Origin: an uncultured Lachnospiraceae bacterium
Lineage (GTDB): Bacteria; Bacillota; Clostridia; Lachnospirales; Lachnospiraceae
Direction: 5' to 3'
Assembly (NCBI GenBank): GCA_947566705.1
Contig: CANOLA010000017.1
Span: 1-45,841 of the forward strand
DNA length: 45,841 nt
Part shown: piece by piece, positions 11,393-45,841 of the stretch
How positions within the stretch are numbered: the first letter of the stretch is position 1
Layout: every line of letters starts with the position of its first letter
Translations under genes and position numbers: made by a program
The notes under the pieces: generated by a model
Database searches by the model: none
What the model saw: the letters and a program-made list of their open reading frames with translations, nothing else
Told to the model about the DNA's origin: nothing

Positions 11393-12013
11393 ATGGCAGA
11401 ATTTTCATTAGATAATGTAAACAGTATGTATATGGATGTCCTTCGGGAGATTGGCAATATTGGAGCCGGCAATGCCACTACTTCGCTTGCCAGCATGATT
11501 AATTCCAAGATTGACATGAATGTTCCCAAAGTGGAACTGATGGAAGCATCAAAGCTCAGTACCGCAATTTGTCCGGAAGAGGAAATTATTGTCGGGATTT
11601 TTCTGGAAGTGAAGCATGATATTACCGGAAGCATGATGTTTCTGATGCGGATGGACAGCGCGCACTATCTGGTAAACAAGCTGATGGGAAAAGATCCGGA
11701 AAACAGGGATGACTTTGATGAAATGGATTTGTCTGCAATGAAGGAAATTGGAAATATCATTGCGGCATCTTACCTTTCGGCGTTATCCGGACTGACAAAT
11801 CTGACAATTGCACCGTCCATTCCTTATATTGCGGTGGATATGGCTGCATCAATTTTAAGTGTTCCGGCAATTCAGTTTGGACAGTACGGTAATAATGCGC
11901 TCTTAATTGAAACGGAGTTTGGGGATGATTACATGATTAACGGATACTTTATCCTGATGCCTGAGGAAGATTCTTATGCAACAATTCTTACTTCTTTAGG
12001 GATCCAGATGTAG
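11393..12013 (+). CDS. cheC: CheY-P phosphatase CheC
   Basis: CheC dephosphorylates CheY-P and interacts with CheD in the Bacillus-type adaptation pathway. The product is 206 residues with two copies of the phosphatase signature [DS]x3Ex2N: D15/E19/N22 in the first half and S114/E118/N121 in the second. Both sites look intact, as in a bifunctional CheC. The gene has a GGGGAGGGG ribosome binding site and follows a 96-base spacer. cheD follows after 21 bases, keeping the cheC-cheD pair. The presence of CheC and CheD points to a Bacillus-like rather than enteric adaptation scheme. Confidence 0.95.
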   Translation: MAEFSLDNVNSMYMDVLREIGNIGAGNATTSLASMINSKIDMNVPKVELMEASKLSTAICPEEEIIVGIFLEVKHDITGSMMFLMRMDSAHYLVNKLMGKDPENRDDFDEMDLSAMKEIGNIIAASYLSALSGLTNLTIAPSIPYIAVDMAASILSVPAIQFGQYGNNALLIETEFGDDYMINGYFILMPEEDSYATILTSLGIQM

Positions 12014-32439: not shown

Positions 32440-33864
32440 ATGAAATTTCGTGACAAGGTACTGGGCGCCAACTTAATACTGCTTTCCATCTGTCTGGGAT
32501 TTGCGGGTTATCTAATGATTTACCGGAATTTTACGCTTGCATGGCAGTCGCAGCTCGAGGGCGGAATTGCCAGCAATAATATGGTGCAGTCCATGGTGGA
32601 ATACGAGCTTTTGTCAAGAATGAATAACAGTGAGGGACTGCCGGAGCAGTATCTGCCGGATATCGGGGCAAAGGTTGCAGGAAGCATTCATTCAGACGGG
32701 ATGGAATTTGCCATCCGCTATGGGGAAAAACTGGTTTATTCGTCAAAGGAAGAGCTGGGCAGGGTTCCGGAAAAACTGTTTCAAAACCTGGAGGTGGGCG
32801 GAAAAAATTACCAGCAGAAAAAAGTGCGGGAGAGCTATTATATTTATGTGACCTCCTGCAGTAAGGTGAATGACAGGCGGCTGAATATCATCAGCAGAAA
32901 CGATGCAGGCACGGCTTATACATTAATGAAACAGCAGACCGCGTATTACAGGCTTCTTTCCATTGGAATGCTTGCTGCAACTGCCGTGGTTTTGTATATT
33001 CTCTGCCGTTACCTGACACGTCCGCTGGAGGAATTAAACCGCGTCAGCGAACAGATGGCAGACGGGGATTACGCGACAAAGGCGGCGGTAAATACTTCCG
33101 ATGAAATCGGGGAACTGGCGTTAAAATTTAACCGGATGAGCGATGCAGTGGCAGGGCACATGAAGGCATTAGAGGACATGGTACACCAGAGGGAACAGTT
33201 TGTGGCGGATTTTACTCATGAAATCAAGACGCCGATGACTGCCATTATCGGTTATGCGGATACCATGCGTTCCATGGAGCTGCCAAGGCAGGATGAAATT
33301 ATGGCGTTAAATTATATTTTTTCCGAGGGGCAGCGTCTGGAAACAATGTCAAAAAAACTGTTTCAGCTTATTTATTTAAACCAGCACGAAATAGATAAAA
33401 AACCGCTTCATATTCCGGATCTGGTACGGGAAACGGGGCAGCTTCTGGCACCGTTTTTAAAGGAGAAAAAAATTGGACTGGATACAGATATAAAAGACGC
33501 CGTGATAGAAGCAGACAAAGAATTACTGGTAACGGCGCTTTACAATATTCTGGACAATGCAAAAAAGGCGTCAGGGGAAAATTCAATTATAAAAATCACT
33601 GGAAAAGAAGAGGGAACAGAACGCTACCGGCTTACGGTAACCGATTACGGAACCGGTATGGACAAAGAGGATATTGCGCATATCTGCGATGAATTTTACA
33701 TGGCGGACAAGTCCCGTTCCCGCAGCGAGGGCGGTGCAGGACTGGGGATGTCGCTTGTGTTTCTGATTATTAAACGCCATGACGCTAAGCTTCTTGTGGA
33801 AAGTGAGAAAGGCCAGGGAACTTCTGTTCATCTGCTTTTTCCCATGAAAAAGGAGAAAAATTGA
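32440..33864 (+). CDS. Membrane sensor histidine kinase
   Basis: The 474-residue product has a membrane helix (about 8-28), an extracellular sensor domain (about 30-170), a second helix (about 171-191), a HAMP domain and a complete kinase core. The phosphorylated His is H260 in DFTHEIKTPM. The ATPase domain has N373 in ILDNAKKAS, DYGTGM near 402-407 and GGAGLGMSL near 431-439. It autophosphorylates and should transfer phosphate to an OmpR-type regulator, most likely the one at 37418, although that gene is separated by three genes and a terminator. GGGAG precedes the ATG. The stop overlaps the TTG start of the next gene. Confidence 0.95.
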   Translation: MKFRDKVLGANLILLSICLGFAGYLMIYRNFTLAWQSQLEGGIASNNMVQSMVEYELLSRMNNSEGLPEQYLPDIGAKVAGSIHSDGMEFAIRYGEKLVYSSKEELGRVPEKLFQNLEVGGKNYQQKKVRESYYIYVTSCSKVNDRRLNIISRNDAGTAYTLMKQQTAYYRLLSIGMLAATAVVLYILCRYLTRPLEELNRVSEQMADGDYATKAAVNTSDEIGELALKFNRMSDAVAGHMKALEDMVHQREQFVADFTHEIKTPMTAIIGYADTMRSMELPRQDEIMALNYIFSEGQRLETMSKKLFQLIYLNQHEIDKKPLHIPDLVRETGQLLAPFLKEKKIGLDTDIKDAVIEADKELLVTALYNILDNAKKASGENSIIKITGKEEGTERYRLTVTDYGTGMDKEDIAHICDEFYMADKSRSRSEGGAGLGMSLVFLIIKRHDAKLLVESEKGQGTSVHLLFPMKKEKN

Positions 33865-34661
33865 AAGAGTTTAAAAGAAAAGAAAGGAAAAGACTGCGGG
33901 TGATTCTTCCGTGTTTGGTACTGCTTCTGTCAGCGGGTATTTTTCTGCCGGGAATTTTCCTGAAATCGAAAGGTGAAAGTTATAAAAATGAAGTCCATGC
34001 GGTTCCAAAGAAGTATCTTTCCTCCAGCGCCGCCATGGCAAGGAGCGCTTCCCTGAATTTAAAATGCAGCGAGCGGCTGGAGCTTGTGGCAGGAAAATGG
34101 GAAAGTGACCTGGAACGCGCTGAAAGCTATGAGATGGCGCAGACGGATTACGAGGCGGTCATGCTTGCCAAAAAGGGGTTGAAACAGCTTTACAGCCAGA
34201 AACTGTATCCGCTGGATTTGGAGGGGTATGGCAGGTGGTACAGCTGGGAGGCAGACTGCCGCAAGGCGGTGGATACCACATTCCATATGTATACGGCTTA
34301 TTACTGGATCATCCGTTTCCAGAAATACGATGGTACGGATATGCATGAAATATGGATGCTGGATGACGGAACCATTTTTATGGCATACGCCGGTAATATG
34401 GACGGGTTTGCCAGCACACGGCTGCGTATGGTTTCAGAGGTGATGGAACAGGACAGGAATGTCACTGTGGAACAGACAGACGGGTTTGTTCCGGTTCCCT
34501 ACCAGGACATAAAACAGGACGGCCTTTCCCTGATGTCCGAGTGCGCATATACAAAAGAGGAAGACCGGTTTTTTATCCGGCAGCTGGCGGGAACGGAAGA
34601 ATATCTGTATCTTCTGTATTCCGGGCGTGTGGAATCACAGGATATTTACAGACCATTATAA
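33861..34661 (+). CDS. Membrane-anchored extracellular protein coupled to the kinase gene
   Basis: I do not recognise a named family. The 266-residue product has a basic N-terminus and one membrane helix (about 13-33), so most of it lies outside the cell. A segment YYWIIRFQKYDG followed by IWMLDDGTIFMAYAG recalls PepSY-like extracellular domains, but this is weak. Translation begins with TTG at 33861, supported by AAGGAG at 33850-33855. The gene overlaps the kinase stop by 4 bases, which implies tight coupling and suggests an accessory sensor, in the manner of YycH/YycI, acting on the kinase. A terminator overlaps its stop codon. Confidence 0.75.
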   Translation: MKEFKRKERKRLRVILPCLVLLLSAGIFLPGIFLKSKGESYKNEVHAVPKKYLSSSAAMARSASLNLKCSERLELVAGKWESDLERAESYEMAQTDYEAVMLAKKGLKQLYSQKLYPLDLEGYGRWYSWEADCRKAVDTTFHMYTAYYWIIRFQKYDGTDMHEIWMLDDGTIFMAYAGNMDGFASTRLRMVSEVMEQDRNVTVEQTDGFVPVPYQDIKQDGLSLMSECAYTKEEDRFFIRQLAGTEEYLYLLYSGRVESQDIYRPL

Positions 34662-34690
34662 GGCAGAATATGCTTTGTAATGGTTTTTAT
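34652..34690 (+). terminator. Strong terminator after the kinase-accessory gene pair
   Basis: ACCATTATAAGGCA at 34652-34665 pairs with TGCTTTGTAATGGT at 34671-34684 (14 bp including two G-T pairs) around a 5-base loop, followed by TTTTATTTTAT. The hairpin contains the stop codon of the upstream gene. It separates the kinase unit from the lipoprotein-regulator-transporter unit. Confidence 0.88.
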
Positions 34691-34717
34691 TTTATATACA
34701 TTTTATTTACAAGCGGC

Positions 34718-34726
34718 TGGTATGAT
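34718..34726 (+). promoter_or_regulatory. Extended -10 promoter of the lipoprotein-regulator-ABC transporter unit
   Basis: TGGTATGAT at 34718-34726 fits an extended -10 element and lies just after the terminator and 35 bases before the first lipoprotein ATG. No convincing -35 is seen, which is compatible with activation by a response regulator. Control by the regulator at 37418 is an inference. Confidence 0.45.
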
Positions 34727-34761: not shown

Positions 34762-36072
34762 ATGATGGGAAGAAAAAAGGTATTTGCACTGGTTCTTGCA
34801 GCAGGTATGCTTCTTACGGCAGGCTGCAGTAAAAAGGCAGAGGATATTCCGGAAGCGAAACCGGAAGTAAACGAAGAGGTTCTGTCGGATTTTCATGATT
34901 CCATGGAGCAGTGTCGCGGGGAAGAGGAATGGAACGAGACCTTTTCCATCAGCAGCGGGGAAGAGGAAAAGGATATTGAGATTTCAGCAGACATTACATT
35001 ACCTGAAACCGGGGATTTTCCGGTAATTGAGGGATGCGTACCTGAATTTAATGAAAAATTCAAGGAAAAACTGGTACGCAGTCTGCTTGGCGATGCCGCA
35101 CTTTATCTGGCGGATGATGCCCATATGATAAAGGAGGATTTAAAGGAGCGGGTTGTGGAGCTGGAAAGACGTGTGGAATATTATTCCACCCTTCAGGGGT
35201 TTGGGGAGGAATCTAAAACCGAAAAGAAAAAGCTGGAAAAATGCCGGGAATACTTAAAAAGTGCCGGGGACAAATACACCGTTACGGCCGATGATTTTAA
35301 AGAGGACCATTACATGGGAGAGCGTGACGGCGTCTGGTACAGGCTGGATATTCAGGGTGCGGGTGACTATAATTATCTTATGAATGGCAGTCAGGGAGAA
35401 ATTCGTTTTGAGATTGTGGATTTGAAGGATGCTGCCCCGCAGGCATCATCCGGCAGCGGCAACGTCAGTATAAGTACTGAACTGCAGGCGGAAAACGTAG
35501 AAAATTCATGCCGGTATTCCATTGAAGAAGCAAGGGAAATGGTTTCCGGTTTTTTAAAAGAAACGGGTTTTTCTGATTTGGGAATCCAAAAAGAAAATTC
35601 CATTCAATGGTATCAGGATGAACTTTTGGGAACCTGCGGTTACCGTTTTGTGATAAGTCCGGTAAAGGTACAGGAGATTCTGGAGGAGGACGGGGAAAAC
35701 CCGAATCCGGGCGGTGAAATTCTGGTTTCAGATGCCGGAATCATATCCGCAATTTTGCGGAATCCGTTTTCTGTTGAAAAAATTTCCGAACATATCAAGC
35801 TGCTGTCCTTAAACCAGATTAAAGAGGGGATTCGGATGGAGTTTAAAAATCATCCGGACAGTTATTTTCATGAGGACGATGGTAATGATTCCCATAAATA
35901 TTCGGAGCTTAAGCTTGTATATGCGGCCGTAAGAAATAAGAAGCAAATGGAAAAAATCAGTTTTCTTCCAGTCTGGGAGCTGTCCCATAAACAGTGGCTA
36001 AATGATAATATCTATATCAATGCGATTGACGGTTCCGTGATTTTCTGGGAAGACATTATGAATAATTCGTAA
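34762..36072 (+). CDS. Lipoprotein A of a three-member paralogous family
   Basis: The 436-residue product has a signal peptide with LTAGC, lipidated Cys at residue 22, so it should be anchored on the outer face of the membrane. The rest is charged and helical in the middle (about 110-175), with a C-terminal domain ending in SELKLVYAAVRN, FLPVWEL and the motif YINAIDGSVI. It is clearly related to the products at 36114 and 38081 (shared signal peptide, NPF/NPVE...ISEH block and C-terminal motif) but is the most divergent. The function is unknown. CAGGAGGA precedes the ATG at 34762, with a second ATG one codon later. Confidence 0.85.
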   Translation: MMGRKKVFALVLAAGMLLTAGCSKKAEDIPEAKPEVNEEVLSDFHDSMEQCRGEEEWNETFSISSGEEEKDIEISADITLPETGDFPVIEGCVPEFNEKFKEKLVRSLLGDAALYLADDAHMIKEDLKERVVELERRVEYYSTLQGFGEESKTEKKKLEKCREYLKSAGDKYTVTADDFKEDHYMGERDGVWYRLDIQGAGDYNYLMNGSQGEIRFEIVDLKDAAPQASSGSGNVSISTELQAENVENSCRYSIEEAREMVSGFLKETGFSDLGIQKENSIQWYQDELLGTCGYRFVISPVKVQEILEEDGENPNPGGEILVSDAGIISAILRNPFSVEKISEHIKLLSLNQIKEGIRMEFKNHPDSYFHEDDGNDSHKYSELKLVYAAVRNKKQMEKISFLPVWELSHKQWLNDNIYINAIDGSVIFWEDIMNNS

Positions 36073-36113
36073 CTGCACATAAACAGACAAATGTATAAAA
36101 GGGGGGAAAATAA

Positions 36114-37415
36114 ATGGGAAGAAAAAGATTTTTTGCATATATTCTTGCCGCCGGTGTGTTTCTTACGGCAGGCTGCAGCAAAAAGGCAGATAAAGTAAAA
36201 CTCATGGATGAAATGCAGAGCGAAAGCGGGGAAGTGACAAAAGCAGAAGATGATTTTGCGCAGTTTCGGGATGAGGAAACATGGGTGGATGAAATCCGGG
36301 GAACTTATCGCGGACAGGATGTGGGGATTTCCGTGAAAGCCGACATTTTGGTTCCGGAAACCACACAGAGCATGGCCGTGGAGGTAAAGATGCCTGTGCT
36401 GAACGAGGAGTACAGGGAATCTGTACTGAAAGGAGCGTTCGCGGATGAGGATATTTATTACTATGACATGGCGCACTGGACGACGGAGGGAATACAGAAA
36501 GCAATAGAATCCTGTGAGTTTTATGAGGATGAAGAACACGCGGAGGGAGTGGAGCACGATTTTCTTGAGGAAAATAAGGAAGAATTGAAAAAGCTTCGGA
36601 AATACCTGAAGGACTCAAAAGATGAGTATACAAAAGCCGATGTTTATGACGTGAATGAATATATTGCCAGACGGGATGGAATATGGTATGTGTTATCCTT
36701 TAGTCAGGAGGAGGGGAATCTGGACATATTTTTTTCTCAGATGGATGACGGTTTTCTGCAAAAACCGGAAGGACTCTGGGAACATGCAAGCTATACCGTA
36801 GAGCATACTTATTCGCTGGATGAGGGTATCAGAAACCTTTGTAAATTAAGTCCTGAGGAAGCCAAAAAGGAGGTCGTTTCTTTTGCGGAAAAAATGGGAA
36901 TTTCAAATCTGACATTTGTCGGTGAACAGGGGCTGGGCTGTCAGCCGGTGTATGATGAAAAAGCAGCGGAATGGGAGGAAAAGGAATATGACGGGGCAGT
37001 AGTGGGGATTGGTTATATGTTTTCGCTTGCTACAGGAATAAGCGGAGAGGTTTGCTTTGGTGCCAAGGATTACTATTTTCGGGATGCGTTTGTAACAAAC
37101 GAGGGAGTAATCCGTTTTTCCATTAGAAATCCGGTGGAGTTAGAACGTGTGACAGAGCATGTTTCGCTGCTTCCCCTGGATAAAATTAAGGAAGCGTTCC
37201 TGACGGAGCTGTCAGAAAATCTGGATGCACACTGCGACAGGGAGCGCAAGTGGTTTCAGTTTGACAGTCTGGAGCTGGTATACCTGCGGCAGATGAAAGA
37301 CAGACGCAGTAACGAGGGGACATACCTTCCGGTATGGGCGCTTAAGGATGACGAGGTGCGGATTTATGTGAATGCAATTGACGGTACAGTAATTCCAGAG
37401 GAGGATATACAGTAA
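36114..37415 (+). CDS. Lipoprotein B of a three-member paralogous family
   Basis: The 433-residue product has a signal peptide with LTAGC and lipidated C21. It closely resembles lipoprotein C at 38081: shared blocks include DFAQFRD, GTYRGQDV, VLKGAFADEDIYYYDMAH, EYTKADVYDVNEYI, NPVELERVTEHVSLL, KIKEAF, FDSLELVYLRQMKD, then PVWALKD and IYVNAIDGTVI at the end. The C-terminal motif recalls PepSY-type domains seen in extracellular inhibitors and sensors. It follows A after 41 bases and is followed by the response regulator after 2 bases, so it lies in the same transcript. Function unknown; a ligand- or stress-sensing role is inferred from the neighbours. Confidence 0.85.
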   Translation: MGRKRFFAYILAAGVFLTAGCSKKADKVKLMDEMQSESGEVTKAEDDFAQFRDEETWVDEIRGTYRGQDVGISVKADILVPETTQSMAVEVKMPVLNEEYRESVLKGAFADEDIYYYDMAHWTTEGIQKAIESCEFYEDEEHAEGVEHDFLEENKEELKKLRKYLKDSKDEYTKADVYDVNEYIARRDGIWYVLSFSQEEGNLDIFFSQMDDGFLQKPEGLWEHASYTVEHTYSLDEGIRNLCKLSPEEAKKEVVSFAEKMGISNLTFVGEQGLGCQPVYDEKAAEWEEKEYDGAVVGIGYMFSLATGISGEVCFGAKDYYFRDAFVTNEGVIRFSIRNPVELERVTEHVSLLPLDKIKEAFLTELSENLDAHCDRERKWFQFDSLELVYLRQMKDRRSNEGTYLPVWALKDDEVRIYVNAIDGTVIPEEDIQ

Positions 37416-37417
37416 TT

Positions 37418-38068
37418 ATGGTTTCAATACTGATTGTGGAAGACGAACATGCCATATCGGATCTGCTCCGGTTAAATTTAGAGAGGTCAGGCTATGCATG
37501 CACCTGTGCTTATGACGGGATGCAGGCGGCAGACCTGCTGGAGGATACGGGATATGATTTAATTATTCTGGATGTGATGCTTCCGAAAGCTGACGGTTTT
37601 GAATTAATGGAATATATCAGACCGCTGGAAATACCGGTAATTTTCCTGACGGCAAAGGATTCCCTGGAGGACCGGATGCGCGGGCTGACCTCCGGGGCGG
37701 AGGACTATATGGTAAAGCCGTTTGAAATCGTGGAGCTTCTGGCACGGATAAAAATTGTACTAAGACGCTGCCATAAGGCGGATACATGCCTGCAGTACCG
37801 GGATATTGTTCTGGATACGAAGTACAGGACGGTCACAAAAGCAGAAAAGACGGTGGAGCTTGCGCCAAAGGAATATGAGCTGCTTACTTTGTTCATGCAG
37901 AATACGGGAATTACCCTTTTCCGGGAAAAAATTTATGAAGAAATCTGGGGAAGCGAGTATTCACTGGAATCGAGGACGCTGGATTTGCATGTCCAGAGGC
38001 TGCGGAAAAAACTGGGGCTGGAGAATCGGTTAAAAACTGTTTATAAGATGGGATACCGACTGGAATAG
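37418..38068 (+). CDS. OmpR/PhoB-family response regulator
   Basis: The 216-residue product has a receiver domain (VEDEH at 7-11, phosphoacceptor D52 in LDVMLP, T78, K100) and a C-terminal winged-helix DNA-binding domain (about 125-216) with LAPKEYELL, TLDLHVQRLRKKL and VYKMGYRLE. It should be phosphorylated by a sensor kinase and bind promoter DNA. The likely partner kinase is at 32440, upstream of three genes and a terminator. Its place between lipoproteins B and C is unusual because kinase and regulator genes are normally adjacent. Auto-regulation of its own operon is a reasonable guess. Confidence 0.95.
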   Translation: MVSILIVEDEHAISDLLRLNLERSGYACTCAYDGMQAADLLEDTGYDLIILDVMLPKADGFELMEYIRPLEIPVIFLTAKDSLEDRMRGLTSGAEDYMVKPFEIVELLARIKIVLRRCHKADTCLQYRDIVLDTKYRTVTKAEKTVELAPKEYELLTLFMQNTGITLFREKIYEEIWGSEYSLESRTLDLHVQRLRKKLGLENRLKTVYKMGYRLE

Positions 38069-38080
38069 GAGGAAAACAAA

Positions 38081-39451
38081 ATGAAAAGAAAAAAGATTTT
38101 TGTATGGCTGTCAGCCGCATGTATTTTATTTACCGCGGGCTGCAGCAAAAAAACGGAACAGATTAAAAATATCGGCACAGAGACGCAGACAAAAGCGGTG
38201 CAGATGGCCGAACGGGAAGATGAATTTGCGCAGTTTCGGGATGCGGCGGCGTGGAATGAAGACATACAGGGAACCTATCAGGGGGACAAAGTGGATATTT
38301 CCATTTTTGCCAGTGTAGACCCTCCGGAGTGTAAACAGAGCGTGGTAGTGGAGGGGAAGGTCTGTGATTTCACACAGGAATACAAGGAAATGGTTCTGAA
38401 AGGAATCGCGGGCGGAGCAGACATTTACTATTATGACATAGCGCACCGCACTACAAAGGAACTGGAATCAATGCTGAATTATTTTGAGGCGGTATTAGAA
38501 ACCTATGAACGCACGGGGGAGTTTACGACAAGAGGCAATTCACGCCATCTGCCATGGGAGTGGGATGATAACTGGAAGGAAGAAGACTGGATGACCAGGC
38601 AGGAGATGGAGGACGCCGTAAAAGATATTCCAAAATACTTAGAGACTTCCAGTGATACCTATACAAAGGCAGATGTTTTTTCTTCTGACGAATATATCAT
38701 CGAACGAAACGGCGGATGGTGCAGAATTTATTTTCTAAGGGAAGAGAATGGAACCAGAACCATCTATATGGTGTCAGACAGGGACAACGGGCCGGATGGA
38801 ATCTGGAAGGATGCAACGCTCATTTCTGTGTTTACTTCTCATGAGGAAGGAGAAAATGAATGCAAATTCAGCACAAAAGAAGCGGAGCAGGAAGCGGTTT
38901 CCTATTTGCAGAAGATTGGGATGGACGGCCTGGTTCCGACAGAAACAAAAAATTTGTTTAGCAGCCCGTCTGGTTTTAAAGAACCGGAACCGGATGTTGA
39001 CGATCCGGTCTGGGGAGACGTATTATATGGATATAAAATCACGCTGGGTGCGGGCATTGGCGGCGAGTCCATGTTTGGAACCATGGAAGAGGAAGGGTTC
39101 GTGGGTAAAGCCTGTGTAATGGACGACGGGGTATTGTCGTTTTACATGAACAATCCGGTGGAACAGACGCGCGTGTCGGAACATGTTGCGCTTCTTTCAC
39201 TCAGCAAGATAAAAACCGCCTTCAAAAAAGAACTGTCACAGAATCTTGACCATTACAGTAAAGACCAGCGCAAAAAGTTTAAATTCGATTCCTTAAAGCT
39301 TGTGTACCTTTGGCAGATGAAGGATGAATCAACCGGGGAAGGTGCATACATTCCGGTCTGGGTTCTTAAGGATACGTCTATGGACCAGCAGGTGCGGATT
39401 TATGTGAATGCGATTGACGGAACCGTGTTGGATGAGGGAAGTCTGAAGTAA
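38081..39451 (+). CDS. Lipoprotein C of a three-member paralogous family
   Basis: The 456-residue product has a signal peptide with FTAGC and lipidated C21. It matches lipoprotein B over its whole length (DEFAQFRD, GTYQGDKV, DIYYYDIAH, TYTKADVFSSDEYI, NPVEQTRVSEHVALLSL, FDSLKLVYLWQMKD, then PVWVLKD and IYVNAIDGTVL) and carries an extra insertion at about 145-185 relative to it. AGGAGG lies upstream of the ATG. It is 12 bases after the regulator and 15 bases before the first adaptor gene. The closer relationship of C to B suggests that these two arose by a more recent duplication. Function unknown. Confidence 0.85.
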   Translation: MKRKKIFVWLSAACILFTAGCSKKTEQIKNIGTETQTKAVQMAEREDEFAQFRDAAAWNEDIQGTYQGDKVDISIFASVDPPECKQSVVVEGKVCDFTQEYKEMVLKGIAGGADIYYYDIAHRTTKELESMLNYFEAVLETYERTGEFTTRGNSRHLPWEWDDNWKEEDWMTRQEMEDAVKDIPKYLETSSDTYTKADVFSSDEYIIERNGGWCRIYFLREENGTRTIYMVSDRDNGPDGIWKDATLISVFTSHEEGENECKFSTKEAEQEAVSYLQKIGMDGLVPTETKNLFSSPSGFKEPEPDVDDPVWGDVLYGYKITLGAGIGGESMFGTMEEEGFVGKACVMDDGVLSFYMNNPVEQTRVSEHVALLSLSKIKTAFKKELSQNLDHYSKDQRKKFKFDSLKLVYLWQMKDESTGEGAYIPVWVLKDTSMDQQVRIYVNAIDGTVLDEGSLK

Positions 39452-39466
39452 AAGCAGGAGGAAAAT

Positions 39467-40447
39467 ATGCGAAAAATCTATATAGCTGCCATATGCCTTG
39501 CATGTATCTTCTGCAGCGCCTGCAGCAGTCAGGAAACCGCAGACTTTGGCGTACCAAGACAGCCCTACGAAAAAAACATATATAACACGGAAAAAGCCAG
39601 ACGGGGAAACCTTGAGCCGGAGCTTACGCTGACGCTTAAAACGGACGGCTATGAACGGATAGACTATGATTCACTGGAAGAAAATTTAGAGCTGGAAAAG
39701 GTATATGTTTCCGTGGGCGACCATGTAAAAAAAGGGGATTTGCTTGTTTCCTTCCAGTGCGGGGATATCCAGCAGACGATTACGGATTATAAGGAAAAAA
39801 TCACCGAAAACAGACTTTTAACCAACCATTATGAAAAGCTGATGCAGATAAATCCCCGGCTTTCCTATAGGGAGGATATTGAAAGCCTGAAAAAAGATAC
39901 AGAGGTTGCAGAGCTTTATCTGAAAGAATATGAAAACAAACTGGAAAGCTACCAGATAAAAGCAAAAAAGGACGGAACCATTATCCGTATAAATGAACGG
40001 CTTGCAGAAGGCATTTATGAAGCAGGGCGGTCATTGATCACACAGGTATGCGGTTCCGGAAAATATGAGGCCGAAAAACCGGAAAATTATACCTTCCGCA
40101 AAGGGGAACTGTATGATGCTATGCAGGATACGGTAAGCTATCCGATGTGTGTGGAAAAGATTACGGAAAAGAGTATTCTATTTAAGCCGAAAGCGGATAT
40201 GGGGGGTGTATCCGAAGATGATATCCTGACAATTATCATTCCGCTGGAAAAGCTTGAGAATGTTGTGTATGTTCCGGCGGCAGCGGTCCGGCATGAAGAA
40301 GATGAAAAAGAGCAGGATATTTATTATGTGTATACCGTGGACGAAAACGGATACCGGAGTGCGGTAAAAATAAAACCGGGCGGAAAGGTCGGAAAATATA
40401 TGGTCATAAAAGAAGGATTACAGGGCGGTGAGACAATATGCATGTAA
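39467..40447 (+). CDS. HlyD/MacA-type adaptor lipoprotein
   Basis: The 326-residue product has a signal peptide ending in CSAC (C19; the -3 residue is atypical for a lipobox). It then has the adaptor layout: a biotinyl-lipoyl half (VYVSVGDHVKKGDLLVSF near 80-100), a short coiled-coil hairpin (about 105-165), the second half (IKAKKDGTIIRI), and a membrane-proximal beta domain with NVVYVPAAAV and a C-terminal EGLQGGETI. Such proteins bridge an ABC permease to extracellular substrate paths. There is no outer membrane here, so a MacA/YknX-like role in Gram-positive export is likely. It overlaps the next adaptor gene by 10 bases. Confidence 0.88.
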   Translation: MRKIYIAAICLACIFCSACSSQETADFGVPRQPYEKNIYNTEKARRGNLEPELTLTLKTDGYERIDYDSLEENLELEKVYVSVGDHVKKGDLLVSFQCGDIQQTITDYKEKITENRLLTNHYEKLMQINPRLSYREDIESLKKDTEVAELYLKEYENKLESYQIKAKKDGTIIRINERLAEGIYEAGRSLITQVCGSGKYEAEKPENYTFRKGELYDAMQDTVSYPMCVEKITEKSILFKPKADMGGVSEDDILTIIIPLEKLENVVYVPAAAVRHEEDEKEQDIYYVYTVDENGYRSAVKIKPGGKVGKYMVIKEGLQGGETICM

Positions 40448-42651
40448 TGGAGGAAAAACGAAAGTGCCGGACAGTGTTTTTGCTGGCTGCATTTCTGATG
40501 TTAAATACAGCCTGCGGACAGAAGGACAGACAGGTGCCAAAGCTTTTGGAACCGGAAGAAATCATGTCTGCCTGCCGTCCGGTGGAGCGCGGAAACGTCG
40601 GGGATATCCGGTTTTTATTTGCTACCGTTGTTCCCATGGAGTACTGCAGCTGTTTTGACTCCCAGGTGACAGTGGATGAGATTTATGTATCCATTGGGGA
40701 GCATGTAAAAAAAGGGGATGTACTGGCAAAGGCGGATACCAAAGCCGCAGAAAAGCAGCTTTCGGATCTGAAGAGGCAGCTTGACCAGGAACAGAAAATA
40801 TATGCACTGAACCGGAAAGTGGCAGCGCTTACGGAAGAAGATTTAAAAAAACGGATCAAAAAAGCCGGGGAAAAGAAAAAGAAAACAAATCGGAAATCGG
40901 AAGAAAATGAAGAAACCGAAATAATGGAAGAACCGGAAGTTTCCGAAAAAGATTTGCGCATACAGCTTGCCGAGCATCAGGAGAACACAGGTTATGATGC
41001 AAAGCTGCATAATTACCGTGTAAAAAAACTAAAGGAGTCCTTAAAGGAACAGGAAACAATTGTAAAAGAAGGGACATTAAAGGCGGCGCATGACGGAACT
41101 GTTTCCTGCATCAAAGACTTAAGCATAAGCCGCATGGCTTCGGCGGGGGAAAATATCGTGGTCTGTTACAGCGGCAAAAAAACGTATCTGGAAGTGCCTG
41201 ATGTCACAGTGGATTCCTACCGCTACCAGGATTACAAGAATAAATACATACTGGCGAAGGGAACGGAATTTGACGTGCAGGAGCTGGAGTATGGCACTGA
41301 GGAAATGATACTTGCAAAAATAAAAGGCCGTTATCCCAACCTGCGTTTTTCATGCCCGAAAAAAGCATCCTTAAAGACAGGGGATACCTGCCCGGTTTAT
41401 TTTGTGAAAGAGAGGGCAGAAAACGTACTGCTGGTGGGGAATGATTCCCTGCATGAGGACGGCAGCAGTACCTATGTTTATGTAAAGGATGGTGATTCCA
41501 GAGTCCGCCGTGAGGTTACGACGGGGCTTTCGGACAAGTATTACACAGAAATCAGGGAAGGTCTTTTCGAGAGGGAACTGGTTTATTATGAAAGCAGCGT
41601 GGAGCTTCCCGGCGGCTATGAACCTTACCCTGTCCACAGGGGGGATTACAGCAGTAAAAACCATGCGGTTTCCTACCAGAGAGCCAGCCAGGCAGTGCTG
41701 TACCGGAGTGAATATGACGGCAGTATTAAAAAGATGGCAGTGGAAGAAAAAAGCCGGGTAAAAAAAGGGGATTTACTCTATGTGATTGCAACAGGAGCAG
41801 GGACGGCAGCAATTGCGGAGGCAGAAAATGCTGTGGAACAGGAAAATTTATCCTACCAGAAAACCATGAAAGAAATGAGAGAGCAGGAAAAGGAACTAAA
41901 AAAAGACTCCGTACAGTGGAAGATTTTATCCTGCCAGAAACAGATTGCAAAAATACAGCATGAAAATACACTGGCGGATTTACAGGAAAAATACAAAGAG
42001 GTCAGTGAGAATAATGACGGAAAGGGAAATATCTCCGTTTATGCAGAAGAAAGCGGAACCGTATTAAAGCAGTATCTGGATGAGGAGGACAAGCTTCTTG
42101 CAGGAGATGAAGTGATTTCCGTTACAACGGGAAAATCAGACCTTCTGCTTTTGCAGCTTCTGCCTTCAGGTGATCAGACCATTTCTGTTAGTAACAATAA
42201 AATTGCAGGAATGCAAGAAGAAGTCATTTATTCACTGGGGAAACAAAAAGGAACCTGTGTGGGATACGGCGTCTGGGAGAATAACAGAAATAAGGTATTT
42301 TTGTATTCAGATCAACAGGGGGCGCATCTTTCCTGGCATGGAGAATCTTCCCTGGAAGCCGCTGCGTTCTATGTGCGGATGGAGGATTCGGATTTTGTAA
42401 AGAACCTGCCGTCCGGCGGATATTTTACCTTCAATGAATATTCTCTGCATGATGTCATTGCAGTGCCCGCTGATATGGTGAAGACAGAAACGGACGCGGT
42501 CAATACAGAAAAGATATGGAATTATGTCTGGCGCATCGCGGACGGGGAGCTGGTAAAGCAGTATGTGTCTGTGGATGAAACGCTTTCCGGAAAGCAGCAG
42601 ATGGTCATACTGTCCGGATTAAAAGAAGGGGACATTCTGGCAAAGGAGTAG
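40438..42651 (+). CDS. Tandem-fused adaptor protein with two HlyD/MacA-type modules
   Basis: The 737-residue product begins with a hydrophobic signal (LNTAC, possible lipidated C26). It contains two complete adaptor modules in one chain. Module 1 (about 60-385) has VSIGEHVKKGDVLA near 85, a charged coiled coil, LKAAHDGTVSCI and an LLVGNDSLHE...VYVKD end. Module 2 (about 400-737) has VEEKSRVKKGDLLYVI near 434, another coiled coil, VYAEESGTVL, DVIAVPADMV and SGLKEGDIL. Usual adaptors are 350-450 residues with one module. The start at 40438 overlaps the preceding gene and follows GGCGGTGAG. The permease starts 4 bases after its stop. Confidence 0.85.
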   Translation: MHVMEEKRKCRTVFLLAAFLMLNTACGQKDRQVPKLLEPEEIMSACRPVERGNVGDIRFLFATVVPMEYCSCFDSQVTVDEIYVSIGEHVKKGDVLAKADTKAAEKQLSDLKRQLDQEQKIYALNRKVAALTEEDLKKRIKKAGEKKKKTNRKSEENEETEIMEEPEVSEKDLRIQLAEHQENTGYDAKLHNYRVKKLKESLKEQETIVKEGTLKAAHDGTVSCIKDLSISRMASAGENIVVCYSGKKTYLEVPDVTVDSYRYQDYKNKYILAKGTEFDVQELEYGTEEMILAKIKGRYPNLRFSCPKKASLKTGDTCPVYFVKERAENVLLVGNDSLHEDGSSTYVYVKDGDSRVRREVTTGLSDKYYTEIREGLFERELVYYESSVELPGGYEPYPVHRGDYSSKNHAVSYQRASQAVLYRSEYDGSIKKMAVEEKSRVKKGDLLYVIATGAGTAAIAEAENAVEQENLSYQKTMKEMREQEKELKKDSVQWKILSCQKQIAKIQHENTLADLQEKYKEVSENNDGKGNISVYAEESGTVLKQYLDEEDKLLAGDEVISVTTGKSDLLLLQLLPSGDQTISVSNNKIAGMQEEVIYSLGKQKGTCVGYGVWENNRNKVFLYSDQQGAHLSWHGESSLEAAAFYVRMEDSDFVKNLPSGGYFTFNEYSLHDVIAVPADMVKTETDAVNTEKIWNYVWRIADGELVKQYVSVDETLSGKQQMVILSGLKEGDILAKE

Positions 42652-42655
42652 GGAT

Positions 42656-45451
42656 ATGTTACATATGGTATTACAGAAAATAAAAAACCAGAAGTGGCTG
42701 AATCTGTGTCTGTTTATAGGCATTCTTCTGATTACAGCGATGTTTTCCTGCCACCCGATGCTGGAACAGGGGGCAGGCTCCGGGATTTTAAGGAGAGGCT
42801 TTCGTGATTATGCAGGGGAAAATAAAAAATATCCTGCCATACTGCAAAGAAACGGTACATGGAAAGAAATAAATAAAAAAGAAATTTCCGCACTGGAAAA
42901 AGGCCTGGACCAGTATAAAGACCAGTGGCAGAAATATATTGACACCGGAATTGTGGACAGCCAGCGGAGCCTGACGCTTCCCGGAGGAAAGGCAGACAGC
43001 AGTCTTGGCGGGAAAAATTATTACCTGAAATTTACATACTTAAAAGAGCTTGGGGAGCATACCGGGGTCGTCCAGGGGGAAGGGTTTAAAAAGCAGCAGG
43101 GGGAATATACCTGTATCATCAGTGAGTACGTTATGGACGCTTTTGGGCTGACGGTGGGGGAGAAACTGTATTTCCCCTATCTGACCGATGAAAAAAACAA
43201 AAGCCTCTGTATGACAGTAGCGGGAATCTGCCGGGAAAAAGATATTACAGAACCATACTGGGAGCAGCCGCTTTCTGATTTTGGAAAAACGGTTTTTTTA
43301 TCAGAGGAAACTTTCGGGGAGATTTTAAAAACGTATGAGTTTGACGGGATGGAATTTACCGATACCGTGATGCTTGACTATACAAAGATTGACAGCAGTA
43401 ATGCAGACATTTATGAGTCTTATGTTTCGCAGTTTGAAAAACTGGACGCTGCATTTTCCAGTAATCTGCTGCAGCAGTTTAAAGATTATCATATAAAACA
43501 AAAAAAAGTACGGCTGATTTTAACCGCGCTGGAGATTCCGTGTATGGTACTGCTTTATCTGTTTCTCTACATGGTTTCTTCCAGGCTGCTTGGCACATGG
43601 GAGGGGGAAATTGCAGTACTCAGGAGCCGGGGAGCTTCTGTTTCGCAAACACTGTTTTTATATTTTCTGTATGCGTTTATGTTATCGGCGGCTGCATTTG
43701 TTCCCGGGATTTTTGCAGGGTATTTTCTGTGCAAATTCGGGGCGGGCTGCGACGGATTTTTACAGTTTACCCAAAAGTCCCTGGGGCTTTACCGTTTTTG
43801 TCCCCAGATGATTGTTTATGCTGCAGTTGCTGCCCTGTCGGTCATTTTGTTTCTGACGGTTCCAGTATTTAAGCTGGCAAAACAGACCATCGTGCAGAGG
43901 AAAAAGCCAAAAAGGAAAAAACCGTTGTGGTTTTCGGGGGCGTTTGATGTTCTTCTGCTTGGAATCTGCGGGTATCTCGGTTATGGATTTGCCAGACAAA
44001 AGGATATAACTGCACTGGATATCATTGCCGGGAAACAGCCGGATCCCATGCTTTTATTAAATGTAACGCTGTTTATCTTTGCCTGCGGCATGTTCTTTTT
44101 AAGGGCAGGGTACGGACTTGTCAGCCTGTGTTTTTGCTGCATGAAAACAAGAGGAAAGGCAGACAGCTATGCGGTGTTTCTGCAGATGAAGCGGACATGG
44201 TTTTCCTACGGACTGCTTGGGATTTTCCTGATGATGACGGTGGCAGGCGGAATCACAAATTCCGCAATGGCGCGCACGATTGGTGAAAATATGGAAAAAC
44301 GTATTACCTGCGATACCGGGGCGGATATGCGCTGTCAGGAAAAATGGAATCTTCGAATGTCGGTGGATGGGAATGGGGAGATGACCGGATGGGCATATAC
44401 CGAGCCGGATTTCGGACGCTTTCTGGAAATCTCAGAAGGAATAACAGCAGCCCGTGTCCTGACGGATGAGAATGTCCAGGTAACAGGCAGTAAAAAGTCG
44501 GCAGAAAACGTCCTTTTTATGGGAATTAACACAAAGGAATTCGGGGAAACTGCCATTCTTCCGGGAGAGGGAAGCGGACACCACTGGTATCATGATTTAA
44601 ATGCACTGGCAAAGGAGCCGGAGGGTGTGATTATTTCTTCAAATCTGGCAGAAAAGCTGGGGGTTTCCAAAGGGGATTTCATCAGCTGCCAGAGGTATTC
44701 CCCGGTTAAAGCAGGGGAAGAAATGGGAAGCATGCACGGAAAAGTATGTGCGGTTGTCAGTGAGTTTCCGGGATTTGAGAAATACCGTTATGAAACGAAT
44801 GAAGAAGGGAAAGTACAGGAAGAGGAGCAGTATCTTGTTGTCTGCAATTACACGCAGGCGGTTACAAAATTTCCGCTGACGCCGTATGAGGTCTGGCTTC
44901 ATTTTTCTTCCGCAGAGGATGTCAAAAAGGTATACCAGTGGGAACAGGACCTTGGGATTACCATGGAAAAAACAGTACTTGCGGACCAGATTGCGGAAAG
45001 CAAAGGCGACCCCGTTGTACAGATTACAAACGGGCTGTTTACACTGGACTTTCTGATTTCCCTGATTGTCTGCGCCATGGGATATCTCATTTACTGGATG
45101 ATTCTGGTAAACAGCCGCCAGCTTCTTTTTGGGATTTACCGTGCGATGGGAATGCAGCTTGCCGGGATTAAGAAAATGCTTGGCATGGAACAGCTGTTCA
45201 GTTCTGCGTTTTTTGCAGCAGCCGGAATGGGAACCGGGGTAATTGCCGCAAACTTTTTTGTGCCGCTGACAGCACTGGTATATCTGCCGCAGAAGCACAG
45301 CCTGCCATTTGTGACACAGATTTATGCAGCGGATTTTGGTAAGATTTGTGCCATGGTAATCCTGCCTGGAATCTTTTGTATTTTTATCCTGTTCCAGAGG
45401 GTGCGGCATATGCGGATTGCACAGATACTGCGGCTTGGGGAGGACATGTAA
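42656..45451 (+). CDS. ABC transporter permease, FtsX/MacB-like with two large extracellular domains
   Basis: The 931-residue product has one membrane helix at about 14-31, a large extracellular domain (about 35-285), a group of helices (about 288-308, 330-355, 384-402), two further helices (about 425-485), a helix near 515-535, a second extracellular domain (about 540-795), and three terminal helices (about 800-820, 845-870, 895-915). This is the duplicated ABC3/FtsX permease layout with ten helices. Such permeases use ATP to move or extract substrates at the membrane surface rather than through it. The ATP-binding protein gene overlaps its stop by one base. Confidence 0.88.
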   Translation: MLHMVLQKIKNQKWLNLCLFIGILLITAMFSCHPMLEQGAGSGILRRGFRDYAGENKKYPAILQRNGTWKEINKKEISALEKGLDQYKDQWQKYIDTGIVDSQRSLTLPGGKADSSLGGKNYYLKFTYLKELGEHTGVVQGEGFKKQQGEYTCIISEYVMDAFGLTVGEKLYFPYLTDEKNKSLCMTVAGICREKDITEPYWEQPLSDFGKTVFLSEETFGEILKTYEFDGMEFTDTVMLDYTKIDSSNADIYESYVSQFEKLDAAFSSNLLQQFKDYHIKQKKVRLILTALEIPCMVLLYLFLYMVSSRLLGTWEGEIAVLRSRGASVSQTLFLYFLYAFMLSAAAFVPGIFAGYFLCKFGAGCDGFLQFTQKSLGLYRFCPQMIVYAAVAALSVILFLTVPVFKLAKQTIVQRKKPKRKKPLWFSGAFDVLLLGICGYLGYGFARQKDITALDIIAGKQPDPMLLLNVTLFIFACGMFFLRAGYGLVSLCFCCMKTRGKADSYAVFLQMKRTWFSYGLLGIFLMMTVAGGITNSAMARTIGENMEKRITCDTGADMRCQEKWNLRMSVDGNGEMTGWAYTEPDFGRFLEISEGITAARVLTDENVQVTGSKKSAENVLFMGINTKEFGETAILPGEGSGHHWYHDLNALAKEPEGVIISSNLAEKLGVSKGDFISCQRYSPVKAGEEMGSMHGKVCAVVSEFPGFEKYRYETNEEGKVQEEEQYLVVCNYTQAVTKFPLTPYEVWLHFSSAEDVKKVYQWEQDLGITMEKTVLADQIAESKGDPVVQITNGLFTLDFLISLIVCAMGYLIYWMILVNSRQLLFGIYRAMGMQLAGIKKMLGMEQLFSSAFFAAAGMGTGVIAANFFVPLTALVYLPQKHSLPFVTQIYAADFGKICAMVILPGIFCIFILFQRVRHMRIAQILRLGEDM

Positions 45452-45841
45452 TGGAAACTGCAATACGGACAGAAGGAATACAGAAAGCATTTACTGAGGG
45501 TTCAAAAAAATTTTATGCACTGGATGACGTATCCGTTTCCATTCCCAAACAGGCGCTTACCATTTTTAAAGGGCGTTCCGGAAGCGGAAAGACCACTTTA
45601 TTAAATATTTTAGGTGCACTGGATACTCCTTCATCCGGAGAGGTTATTTTTCTGGGGGAAAAACTTTCCGGGAAAACGAAGGAGGAACTGGAGCAGCTGC
45701 GGCGGTACCGGATGGGATTTGTGTTCCAGTCGGCAGCCATGATTACCTGTATGAATGCATATGAAAATGTGGAGTTTGCACTCAGGCTTGCGGAGTATTC
45801 CGGTGACAGGGACAAAAGGGTACGGGAAATATTAGGACGCG
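45451..45841 (+). CDS. ABC transporter ATP-binding protein, N-terminal part (3' end outside window)
   Basis: The frame opens at ATG 45451, overlapping the permease stop codon by one base, and runs to the window end (130 codons). It encodes a MacB/LolD-type ATPase N-terminus: Walker A GRSGSGKTT near residue 44, then LNILGALDTPSSGEV, and a Q-loop in FVFQSAAMI near 90. The ABC signature and Walker B lie beyond the window. It should energise the permease at 42656. GGGGAGG upstream of the ATG supports the start. Confidence 0.93.
   Translation, partial: METAIRTEGIQKAFTEGSKKFYALDDVSVSIPKQALTIFKGRSGSGKTTLLNILGALDTPSSGEVIFLGEKLSGKTKEELEQLRRYRMGFVFQSAAMITCMNAYENVEFALRLAEYSGDRDKRVREILGR

What the first reader, a model, noticed from the sequence alone, without database searches (positions are those of the whole stretch)
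34762..45841. Candidate undescribed envelope sensing-transport cassette: three paralogous lipoproteins, response regulator, adaptors, ABC3 permease and ATPase
The sequence shows three related lipoproteins of 433-456 residues, an OmpR regulator between the second and third, a single adaptor, a double adaptor, a ten-helix FtsX-type permease and its ATPase, all in one direction with short gaps or overlaps. MacAB-like transporters are known, but I know of no described system with this set of lipoproteins. I infer that the lipoproteins feed signal or substrate to the transporter and kinase.
Basis: partly seen in the sequence, partly recalled or inferred. Interest (0 to 1): 0.75.

Follow-up and report, generated by a model that had tools for sequence, protein, structure and literature searches.

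The report
Regulated envelope exporter with sensor-type lipoproteins
A gut bacterium carries an export pump of the cell envelope, a pair of signalling proteins and a row of surface lipoproteins that appear to share one type of control switch; the lipoproteins end in a domain related to known regulators of sensor kinases, which gives a testable idea of what they do.

Summary
The genes are real and recur. Of 58 assessable relatives of the permease (80 fetched), 50 keep a five-gene exporter: single adaptor, double adaptor, FtsX-type permease, two ATPases (the second lies on contig C90; the window ends too early). Lipoproteins accompany it in 29, a matching kinase and/or regulator in 22. The kinase and a 266-residue membrane protein lie upstream of the given coordinates.

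Two new links: (1) the lipoproteins are DUF6034 (Pfam, no function), and their last ~190 residues match YycI, a WalK regulator (HH probability 97-98%). (2) A promoter, GATACA-N5-GATACA-N9-TATRAT, marks the regulator gene and the first lipoprotein/adaptor gene: the repeat precedes them in 14 of 28 and 22 of 45 loci, against 2 of 495 unrelated genes and 0 of 16 in lipoprotein-free relatives.

They are not obligate partners: in 299 Lachnospiraceae genomes the permease is in 39, with a lipoprotein nearby in 6, and most DUF6034 loci examined have other neighbours. Best reading: a two-component-controlled envelope exporter whose lipoproteins probably tune the kinase. Binding, signal and substrate are untested. 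New variant of a known kind.

The parts
32440..33864 (+). Sensor histidine kinase: TM, ~145-aa extracellular domain, TM, HAMP, HisKA (HEIKTP, His260), HATPase_c
   Evidence: Pfam HATPase_c 1.5e-21, HAMP 6e-13, HisKA 2.7e-10; helices 7-25 and 171-189; H-box
33861..34661 (+). hyp266: one-helix extracytoplasmic protein, overlaps the kinase gene by 4 bases; no known family; directly downstream of the kinase in 17 of 23 relatives where that position is visible
34650..34686 (+). terminator-type hairpin (16-bp stem, then T-rich tail) between the kinase unit and LP1
   Evidence: dG -19.9, z -5.83; strong hairpins with T-rich tails after hyp266 also in 4 of 18 relatives folded: L052, L094, L096, L139
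34695..34711 (+). operator: direct repeat TATACA-N5-TTTACA, 11-base period; the only site found next to these genes in the window (none before the kinase)
   Evidence: conserved at this place in relatives
34721..34726 (+). -10 box TATGAT, 9 bases after the operator
34762..36072 (+). LP1, DUF6034 lipoprotein with YycI-like C-terminal part
   Evidence: PF19499 61.6 bits; (as a row of the profile)
36114..37415 (+). LP2, DUF6034 lipoprotein; residues 244-422 match YycI
   Evidence: PF19499 63.5 bits
37418..38068 (+). OmpR/PhoB-type response regulator (Asp52), here displaced from its usual place in front of the kinase
   Evidence: RR directly upstream of the kinase in 26 of 28 relatives, the other 2 at a locus edge
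38081..39451 (+). LP3, DUF6034 lipoprotein
   Evidence: PF19499 42.3 bits
39467..40447 (+). MFP1, single HlyD/MacA-type adaptor with lipobox
   Evidence: TIGR01730 6.2e-14, below its cut-off
40438..42651 (+). MFP2, double adaptor (two fused HlyD/MacA-type units) with lipobox
42656..45451 (+). FtsX/MacB-superfamily permease, 9 hydropathy segments (ten helices likely), two extracellular domains
   Evidence: Pfam FtsX 2.5e-12
45451..45841 (+). First ABC ATPase (MacB/LolD type), cut at the contig end; its rest and a second ATPase are on contig C90 (L090:1-342 and 339-1211)

Best explanation
A two-component-controlled, MacAB-like envelope export system of Lachnospiraceae. The kinase (with hyp266) senses something at the cell surface; the PhoB-type regulator activates a promoter with a GATACA-N5-GATACA direct repeat just upstream of the -10 box in front of the lipoprotein-exporter genes and, in relatives, in front of its own gene (in the window the regulator gene lies inside the lipoprotein-exporter unit, so one site would serve both). 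The exporter consists of two lipid-anchored adaptors (one of them a fused pair), a permease of about ten helices with two extracellular domains and two ATPases, and most likely removes a peptide or lipid-like compound from the membrane or envelope. The DUF6034 lipoproteins, made from the same promoter, carry a YycI-like module and most likely act as extracellular regulators of the kinase (feedback), secondarily as ligand catchers. Shown here by sequence: the anatomy, its recurrence, the common promoter, the YycI-like module. Inferred: regulator binding to the repeat, activation, kinase control by the lipoproteins, direction and kind of transport.
For: Recurrence: five exporter genes in 50 of 58 assessable relatives, lipoproteins in 29, kinase and/or regulator in 22. 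Promoter: repeat upstream of RR in 14 of 28, first LP/MFP1 in 22 of 45, 0 of 16 in the lipoprotein-free sister group, 2 of 495 unrelated genes; shuffle means 0.04, 0.02, 0, 0.5. The -10 box stands exactly 9 bases on in 36 of 45 noncoding against 2 of 25 coding matches; the composite pattern occurs 40 times in 29 of 81 sources (about 1.57 Mb), 39 of them next to LP, RR, MFP1 or MFP2. In a relative not used to define it (G016) both RR and LP sites are present. In 8 whole cassette-bearing genomes (five of them also in the named set) 17 composite sites against 1 for the reversed pattern, 10 of 17 in front of an RR or LP of these families, one of these before an LP on another contig than its exporter. 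Two DUF6034 loci without this exporter, L053 and L059, have sites before the DUF6034 gene, L059 also before its regulator. YycI: cassette LPs vs YycI 96.9%, E 2e-10 over 144 columns; C part alone 97.8%, 7e-13, score 79.8 against at most 17.1 in 30 column shuffles; non-cassette DUF6034 vs YycI 95.9%; known pair YycI-YycH 97.4%; unrelated pairs with YycI, YycH or YpeB 0.1-1.2%. In four relatives (L111, L116, L118, L133) genes of 150 and 236-238 aa sit where the lipoproteins would be; in L111, the one scanned, they are LytTR-type and LiaF-like, which points to envelope stress.
Against: No binding, structure or expression data; structure prediction was off. The repeat was read off the same upstream regions it was then counted in, and the spacing likewise (RR regions and G016 are the independent parts); named loci include near-copies; half of the loci lack an exact match. 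In the window's own genome the short pattern (10 hits) is little above its reversed control (5), and the composite form with GATRCA has 0 hits. No site was found before the window's kinase unit. YycI acts on WalK through its transmembrane helix (PMC7355866, passages), which lipoproteins lack; LPs vs YycH, which shares the YycI fold, gave only 5.9%, with a thin 4-row YycH alignment. The YycI N-terminal domain is not recovered. G061's cassette has no site. 7 of the 17 composite sites have no RR or LP behind them. LP and exporter are often apart.
Confidence: 0.6

Rival explanations
1. The lipoproteins are immunity-type or scavenger proteins (like LanI next to LanFEG, recalled): they bind an antimicrobial peptide outside the membrane and hand it to the exporter; the YycI-like module is a reused fold without effect on the kinase.
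For: Arrays of 1-6 lipoproteins expanded largely separately in each lineage (50 label changes for 48 sources, minimum 47), with the exporter's promoter in front; the MacB superfamily includes lantibiotic-resistance transporters (PMC5985334, passages). DUF6034 stands near ABC ATPases in 24 of 34 non-cassette loci.
Against: No precursor peptide or modification enzyme noticed beside the loci mapped (not searched for as such). The module is YycI-like rather than that of a known binding protein. L059 and L053 have the site at DUF6034 without this exporter.
Confidence: 0.25
2. The lipoproteins are structural parts or cargo of the exporter, as the reader's 'feed substrate' suggests in its strongest form.
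For: An LP gene stands directly before MFP1 in 24 of the 29 assessable LP-bearing loci (my count on the maps); cassette LPs split from 20 other DUF6034 by one branch, support 100.
Against: 29 of 58 assessable exporters have no LP, 16 of 16 in the sister group; 50 of the 56 DUF6034-bearing genomes of 299 have no cassette permease beside it.
Confidence: 0.1
3. Chance neighbours: unrelated transcription units that happen to lie in a row.
For: A terminator-type hairpin divides the kinase unit from the rest; gene order varies (RR displaced in the window; LP, RR and HK between permease and ATPases in L138).
Against: Recurrence in many relatives and a common promoter at both units of relatives.
Confidence: 0.03

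Closest known systems
MacAB-like exporters of Gram-positive bacteria (YknWXYZ, Spr0693-0695)
   Same: FtsX/MacB-superfamily permease, MacA/HlyD adaptor, separate ATPase
   Different: About ten helices and two extracellular domains instead of four and one (MacB topology recalled); two different ATPases; one adaptor is a fused pair and both bear lipoboxes; TCS and lipoproteins attached
WalRK-YycHI (WalR, WalK, YycH, YycI)
   Same: OmpR-type regulator, kinase, one-helix extracellular protein, YycI-like protein in this order in several relatives (such as L113, L135, L094, L096); LP C-terminal part homologous to YycI by profile
   Different: LPs are lipid-anchored, carry a long N-terminal part not matching YycI, occur in arrays; hyp266 is not related to YycH (1.2%); the kinase has no PAS match in Pfam
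Bce-type peptide-sensing modules (BceRS-BceAB)
   Same: TCS plus FtsX-type permease of about ten helices
   Different: Adaptors present, two extracellular domains, kinase with a large extracellular domain instead of a bare hairpin (Bce features recalled)
DUF6034 (PF19499)
   Same: LP1-LP3 exceed the family cut-off
   Different: The 58 cassette LPs aligned lie apart from 20 DUF6034 next to other systems
PhoB/pho-box regulation
   Same: Direct repeat with 11-base period directly upstream of the -10 box; the regulator's best NCBIfam hit is PhoB (204 bits, below the 296 cut-off)
   Different: Different half-site (GATACA); pho-box layout is recalled, not tested

Membership tests
DUF6034 (PF19499) | Score over the curated cut-off of 27 bits | tested here: met
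   61.6, 63.5, 42.3 bits
YycI (PF09648) module | Homologous C-terminal two-domain part with PVW and NA signatures | tested here: met
   HH 96.9%, E 2e-10; C part 97.8%, 7e-13
YycI (PF09648) module | Homologous N-terminal domain | tested here: inconclusive
   Prob 5.0% and 1.3%; scores 17.6 and 15.2 against column-shuffle maxima 10.3 and 12.4
YycI protein family as such | Single-pass membrane anchor; Pfam YycI hit over cut-off | tested here: not met
   Lipobox-like signal in 53 of 65 LPs; YycI hit only E 0.015 in one non-cassette DUF6034 and not among the families shown for the 58 cassette LPs (25 of 81 families shown)
WalRK-YycHI system | YycH homologue between kinase and YycI | tested here: not met
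   hyp266 vs YycH 1.2%, vs YycI 0.5%; the YycH alignment had only 4 rows
MacAB-type exporter | FtsX-fold permease with ABC ATPase and MacA/HlyD adaptor in one operon | tested here: met
   one operon inferred from gaps
MacAB-type exporter | Four helices and one periplasmic domain per permease | tested here: not met
   9 hydropathy segments, two extracellular stretches of about 250 residues
Bce-type module | Kinase without extracellular sensor domain | tested here: not met
   Helices 7-25 and 171-189 leave about 145 residues outside
Bce-type module | No adaptor proteins | tested here: not met
   MFP1 and MFP2
LolCDE lipoprotein release | Equivalog score for LolC/LolE | tested here: not met
   lolCE 29.1 bits against 362; PDB LolF/LolC best E 9e-5 over about 70 residues
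Anti-phage defence (PADLOC) | Match to a PADLOC model | tested here: not met
   7 proteins scanned, one hit at E 0.026

The most novel reading that the evidence does not exclude
A class of envelope-sensing exporters in which arrays of lipid-anchored, YycI-like receptors, multiplied largely separately in each lineage, serve as exchangeable extracellular sensors that gate one kinase; the kinase in turn drives the exporter and more receptors, also receptors encoded elsewhere in the genome, as the site before an unlinked lipoprotein in G061 suggests. DUF6034 as a whole would then be a family of kinase-tuning lipoproteins used by several ABC transporter types.
Probability: 0.3. Interest if true: 0.72.

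Novelty: new variant of a known kind. Interest (0 to 1): 0.52.

Why it matters
It gives DUF6034, a Pfam family without function and without any paper in the held library (search), a first relation to a known protein (YycI) and a regulatory context, and it offers a concrete promoter element by which the regulon can be looked for in other gut Lachnospiraceae. If the lipoproteins do tune the kinase, the known principle of accessory kinase regulators (YycH/YycI) extends from one essential cell-wall system to a set of commensal efflux systems.

Tried and rejected
PDB sequence searches with the lipoprotein profiles found nothing credible (best is a spindle-pole coiled coil, 0.0013; best a C-type lectin chain, 0.0029) and nothing for hyp266. 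hyp266 as a YycH or YycI homologue: rejected. LP vs hyp266 gave 23.8%, but over 8 columns of the signal region only, so I do not count it as a relation. YpeB (80.9%, 35 columns) and YcdB/DUF4901 (85.6%, 70 columns) are weaker matches than YycI, so the relation is to the PepSY-type superfamily with YycI closest of those tried (non-cassette DUF6034 vs YpeB 38.7%). LP vs YycH 5.9%. Defence system: rejected. LP-TCS linkage by independent pairs on the permease tree was not significant (median p 0.5). Genome-wide regulon in the window's own genome by the short pattern: 10 hits against 5 in the control, not usable. Operator in non-cassette DUF6034 loci: a noncoding site in 3 of 33, in two of them at DUF6034 or its regulator (L053, L059), so most of these systems seem to use another specificity. 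ATPase motifs: Walker A in 73 of 73 and 69 of 69 first and second ATPases, but a strict LSGG only in 42 and 33 (variants not examined). Papers: searches; passages seen of PMC7355866, PMC5985334, PMC4887032; other papers only as listings. The list was cut at the weak end, so three weak matches in permease-bearing genomes (G132, G134, G344) could not be placed. The G061 count of 'beside' includes a lipoprotein about 8 kb from the permease.

Full report
WHAT IS THERE. From 32440 on, all genes of interest run on the + strand: kinase, hyp266, LP1, LP2, response regulator, LP3, MFP1, MFP2, permease, ATPase. Pfam confirms kinase, regulator, FtsX permease and ABC ATPase, and places all three lipoproteins in DUF6034. 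MFP2 is two adaptor units in one chain: its halves match each other (E 2.2e-24) and MFP1 (E 1e-37 and 2.5e-22). MFP1 and MFP2 carry lipobox-like signals in 59 of 67 and 55 of 73 relatives, and in the window by reading, so five lipoproteins may be made here. The ATPase is cut by the contig end; contig C90 begins with the same 55 bases, completes it and carries a second ATPase 60% identical to that of a relative.

RECURRENCE. Mapping of 40 DUF6034 loci found the same set in other genomes, typically in the order RR-HK-hyp266-LPn-MFP1-MFP2-permease-ATPase-ATPase. Of these, 58 have enough flank to judge: all five exporter genes in 50, LP in 29, RR and/or HK of this family in 22 (18 with LP, 4 without), LP without either in 11, neither LP nor TCS in 25. 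Where the kinase is seen, the regulator lies directly upstream in 26 of 28 (the other two at the locus edge) and hyp266 directly downstream in 17 of 23 with that position visible. The window, with its regulator between LP2 and LP3, is therefore a rearranged member.

HOW TIGHT IS THE LINK. On a permease tree of 78 rows the LP label needs 8 changes against 19.9 in shuffles (0 of 500 as low); one clade of 19 rows has no LP in 16 of 16 assessable loci, the other named loci have LP in 29 of 42. LP and TCS do not vary together significantly on that tree. In an even sample of 299 Lachnospiraceae genomes, own genome included, the permease is found in 39, DUF6034 by Pfam in 56, and both side by side in 6, one of them about 8 kb apart. 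Of 34 non-cassette DUF6034 loci, 18 have a kinase and regulator and 24 an ABC ATPase within six genes; 4 have neither. A typical one is RR-HK-DUF6034-two small membrane proteins-ATPase. So DUF6034 is a shared accessory of several TCS/ABC neighbourhoods, and this exporter occurs with or without it. On a tree of 58 cassette LPs and 20 others the two sets are split by one branch (support 100), and LPs group mostly by source: 50 label changes for 48 sources, minimum 47.

WHAT THE LIPOPROTEINS ARE. No solved structure matches credibly by sequence. Single LPs give hits to PepSY-type families (YpeB in 5 of 58, best 1.7e-5; DUF4901 in 4; PepSY in 2; DUF6034 itself in 47), and a non-cassette DUF6034 gave a weak YycI hit. 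Profile comparison gives the nearest relative of those tried: cassette LPs vs YycI 96.9%, E 2e-10, residues 244-422 of LP2; other DUF6034 vs YycI 95.9%; vs YpeB 80.9% and DUF4901 85.6% over short stretches. The accepted relatives YycI and YycH score 97.4% in the same test (their common fold is stated in PMC7355866, passages). Unrelated pairs give 0.1-1.2%; LP vs hyp266 gave 23.8% over 8 columns of the signal region, and LP vs YycH only 5.9%. The C-terminal part alone reaches 97.8%, and 30 column-shuffled versions score at most 17.1 against 79.8. The YycI N-terminal domain is not recovered. LP, YycI and DUF6034 share the PVW...NA ending. In Bacillus YycH and YycI inhibit WalK, in Staphylococcus they activate WalRK, and contact is through transmembrane helices (PMC7355866, passages); an LP would have to act by another contact.

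THE COMMON PROMOTER. Upstream regions showed a direct repeat GATACA-N5-GATACA. Written as KATRCANNNNNKWTRCA it occurs 45 times in 157,352 noncoding bases and 25 times in 1,415,896 coding bases. It stands upstream of RR in 14 of 28, of the first LP or MFP1 in 22 of 45, of later LP/MFP1 in 3 of 71, of MFP2/permease/ATPase starts in 1 of 294, of unrelated genes in 2 of 495, and of MFP1 in the LP-free clade in 0 of 16. A -10 box lies exactly nine bases on in 36 of 45 noncoding but 2 of 25 coding matches; the composite pattern occurs 40 times in 29 of 81 sources, 39 of them next to LP, RR, MFP1 or MFP2. These counts are on the loci from which the pattern was read, near-copies included; the RR regions were not used to define it. 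G016, not used either, has it at both places; G061 has none at its cassette but has one before an LP on another contig. Of 17 composite sites in 8 whole genomes, 10 precede an RR or LP and 7 do not; the reversed pattern gave 1. Among 33 DUF6034 loci without the cassette, 3 have a noncoding site; L053 and L059 have it before DUF6034 and L059 also before its regulator, which ties DUF6034 to this type of regulator even without the exporter. In the window the site is 34695-34711, with TATGAT at 34721-34726 and LP1 at 34762; on its own it would be weak (2 hits in the window against 0.27 expected; 10 hits against 5 control hits in the own genome), and there is none before the kinase. A terminator-type hairpin ends the kinase unit just before it, as in 4 of 18 relatives folded. 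Layout and regulator type resemble PhoB control (pho-box layout recalled).

MECHANISM. Shown: in relatives two gene groups, sensor and lipoprotein-exporter, with a common promoter element; in the window one such promoter before LP1, with the regulator inside that unit; a complete exporter across C17 and C90; lipoproteins with a YycI-like part. Inferred: the regulator binds the repeat and activates; the kinase senses an envelope event; the lipoproteins feed back on the kinase; the exporter removes a membrane- or envelope-active compound. Support for the envelope-stress reading comes from relatives with LytTR-type and LiaF-like genes at the LP position (L111 scanned; genes of the same sizes in L116, L118, L133) and from the antimicrobial-peptide role of known MacB-type Gram-positive exporters (PMC5985334 and PMC4887032, passages). 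Substrate and signal remain unknown.

VERDICT. I rate it a new variant of a known kind (TCS-controlled MacAB-like exporter) with a new and testable role for DUF6034.

Noticed in passing
L090:1233-4297 (contig C90, continuation of the window): Directly after the second ATPase come an M14 zinc carboxypeptidase and an overlapping YkuD-type L,D-transpeptidase with Ig-like domains. Downstream genes of relatives were mapped by length only, so whether this is shared was not tested.
   Followed up: partly
L090:339-1211: The second ATPase is longer than the first by about 60-70 residues at its C-terminus in the relatives read; in the window's genome this end gives a weak SymE-type (AbrB-like, recalled) hit, E 0.0023.
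   Followed up: no
L111:5309-6536 and the same place in L116, L118, L133: Cassettes in which LytTR-type and LiaF-like genes stand where the lipoproteins would be; families scanned in L111 only.
   Followed up: partly
L074:9208-14547, L070 and others: DUF6034 in RR-HK-DUF6034-membrane proteins-ATPase neighbourhoods followed by a 490-519 aa protein, in L074 with CARDB/NPCBM-type domains; a second DUF6034 context.
   Followed up: partly
L059 (G228:C61): A DUF6034 locus without the cassette permease whose regulator and DUF6034 genes both have the operator pattern upstream and whose kinase and regulator resemble the cassette's (292 and 264 bits).
   Followed up: no
window 11416-11432, - strand: A second match to the operator pattern, gene context not studied.
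   Followed up: no
L138: Cassette with another order: MFP1-MFP2-permease, then LP-LP-RR-HK-hyp266, then the two ATPases.
   Followed up: no
L107:2889-5231: Two putative lipoproteins (407 and 368 aa, no Pfam hit up to E 0.01) upstream of an LP-free exporter.
   Followed up: no
window 27866-32371: The gene before the kinase encodes a 1501-aa PolC-type DNA polymerase III (read from the sequence, no family search); the kinase begins 68 bases after it.
   Followed up: no
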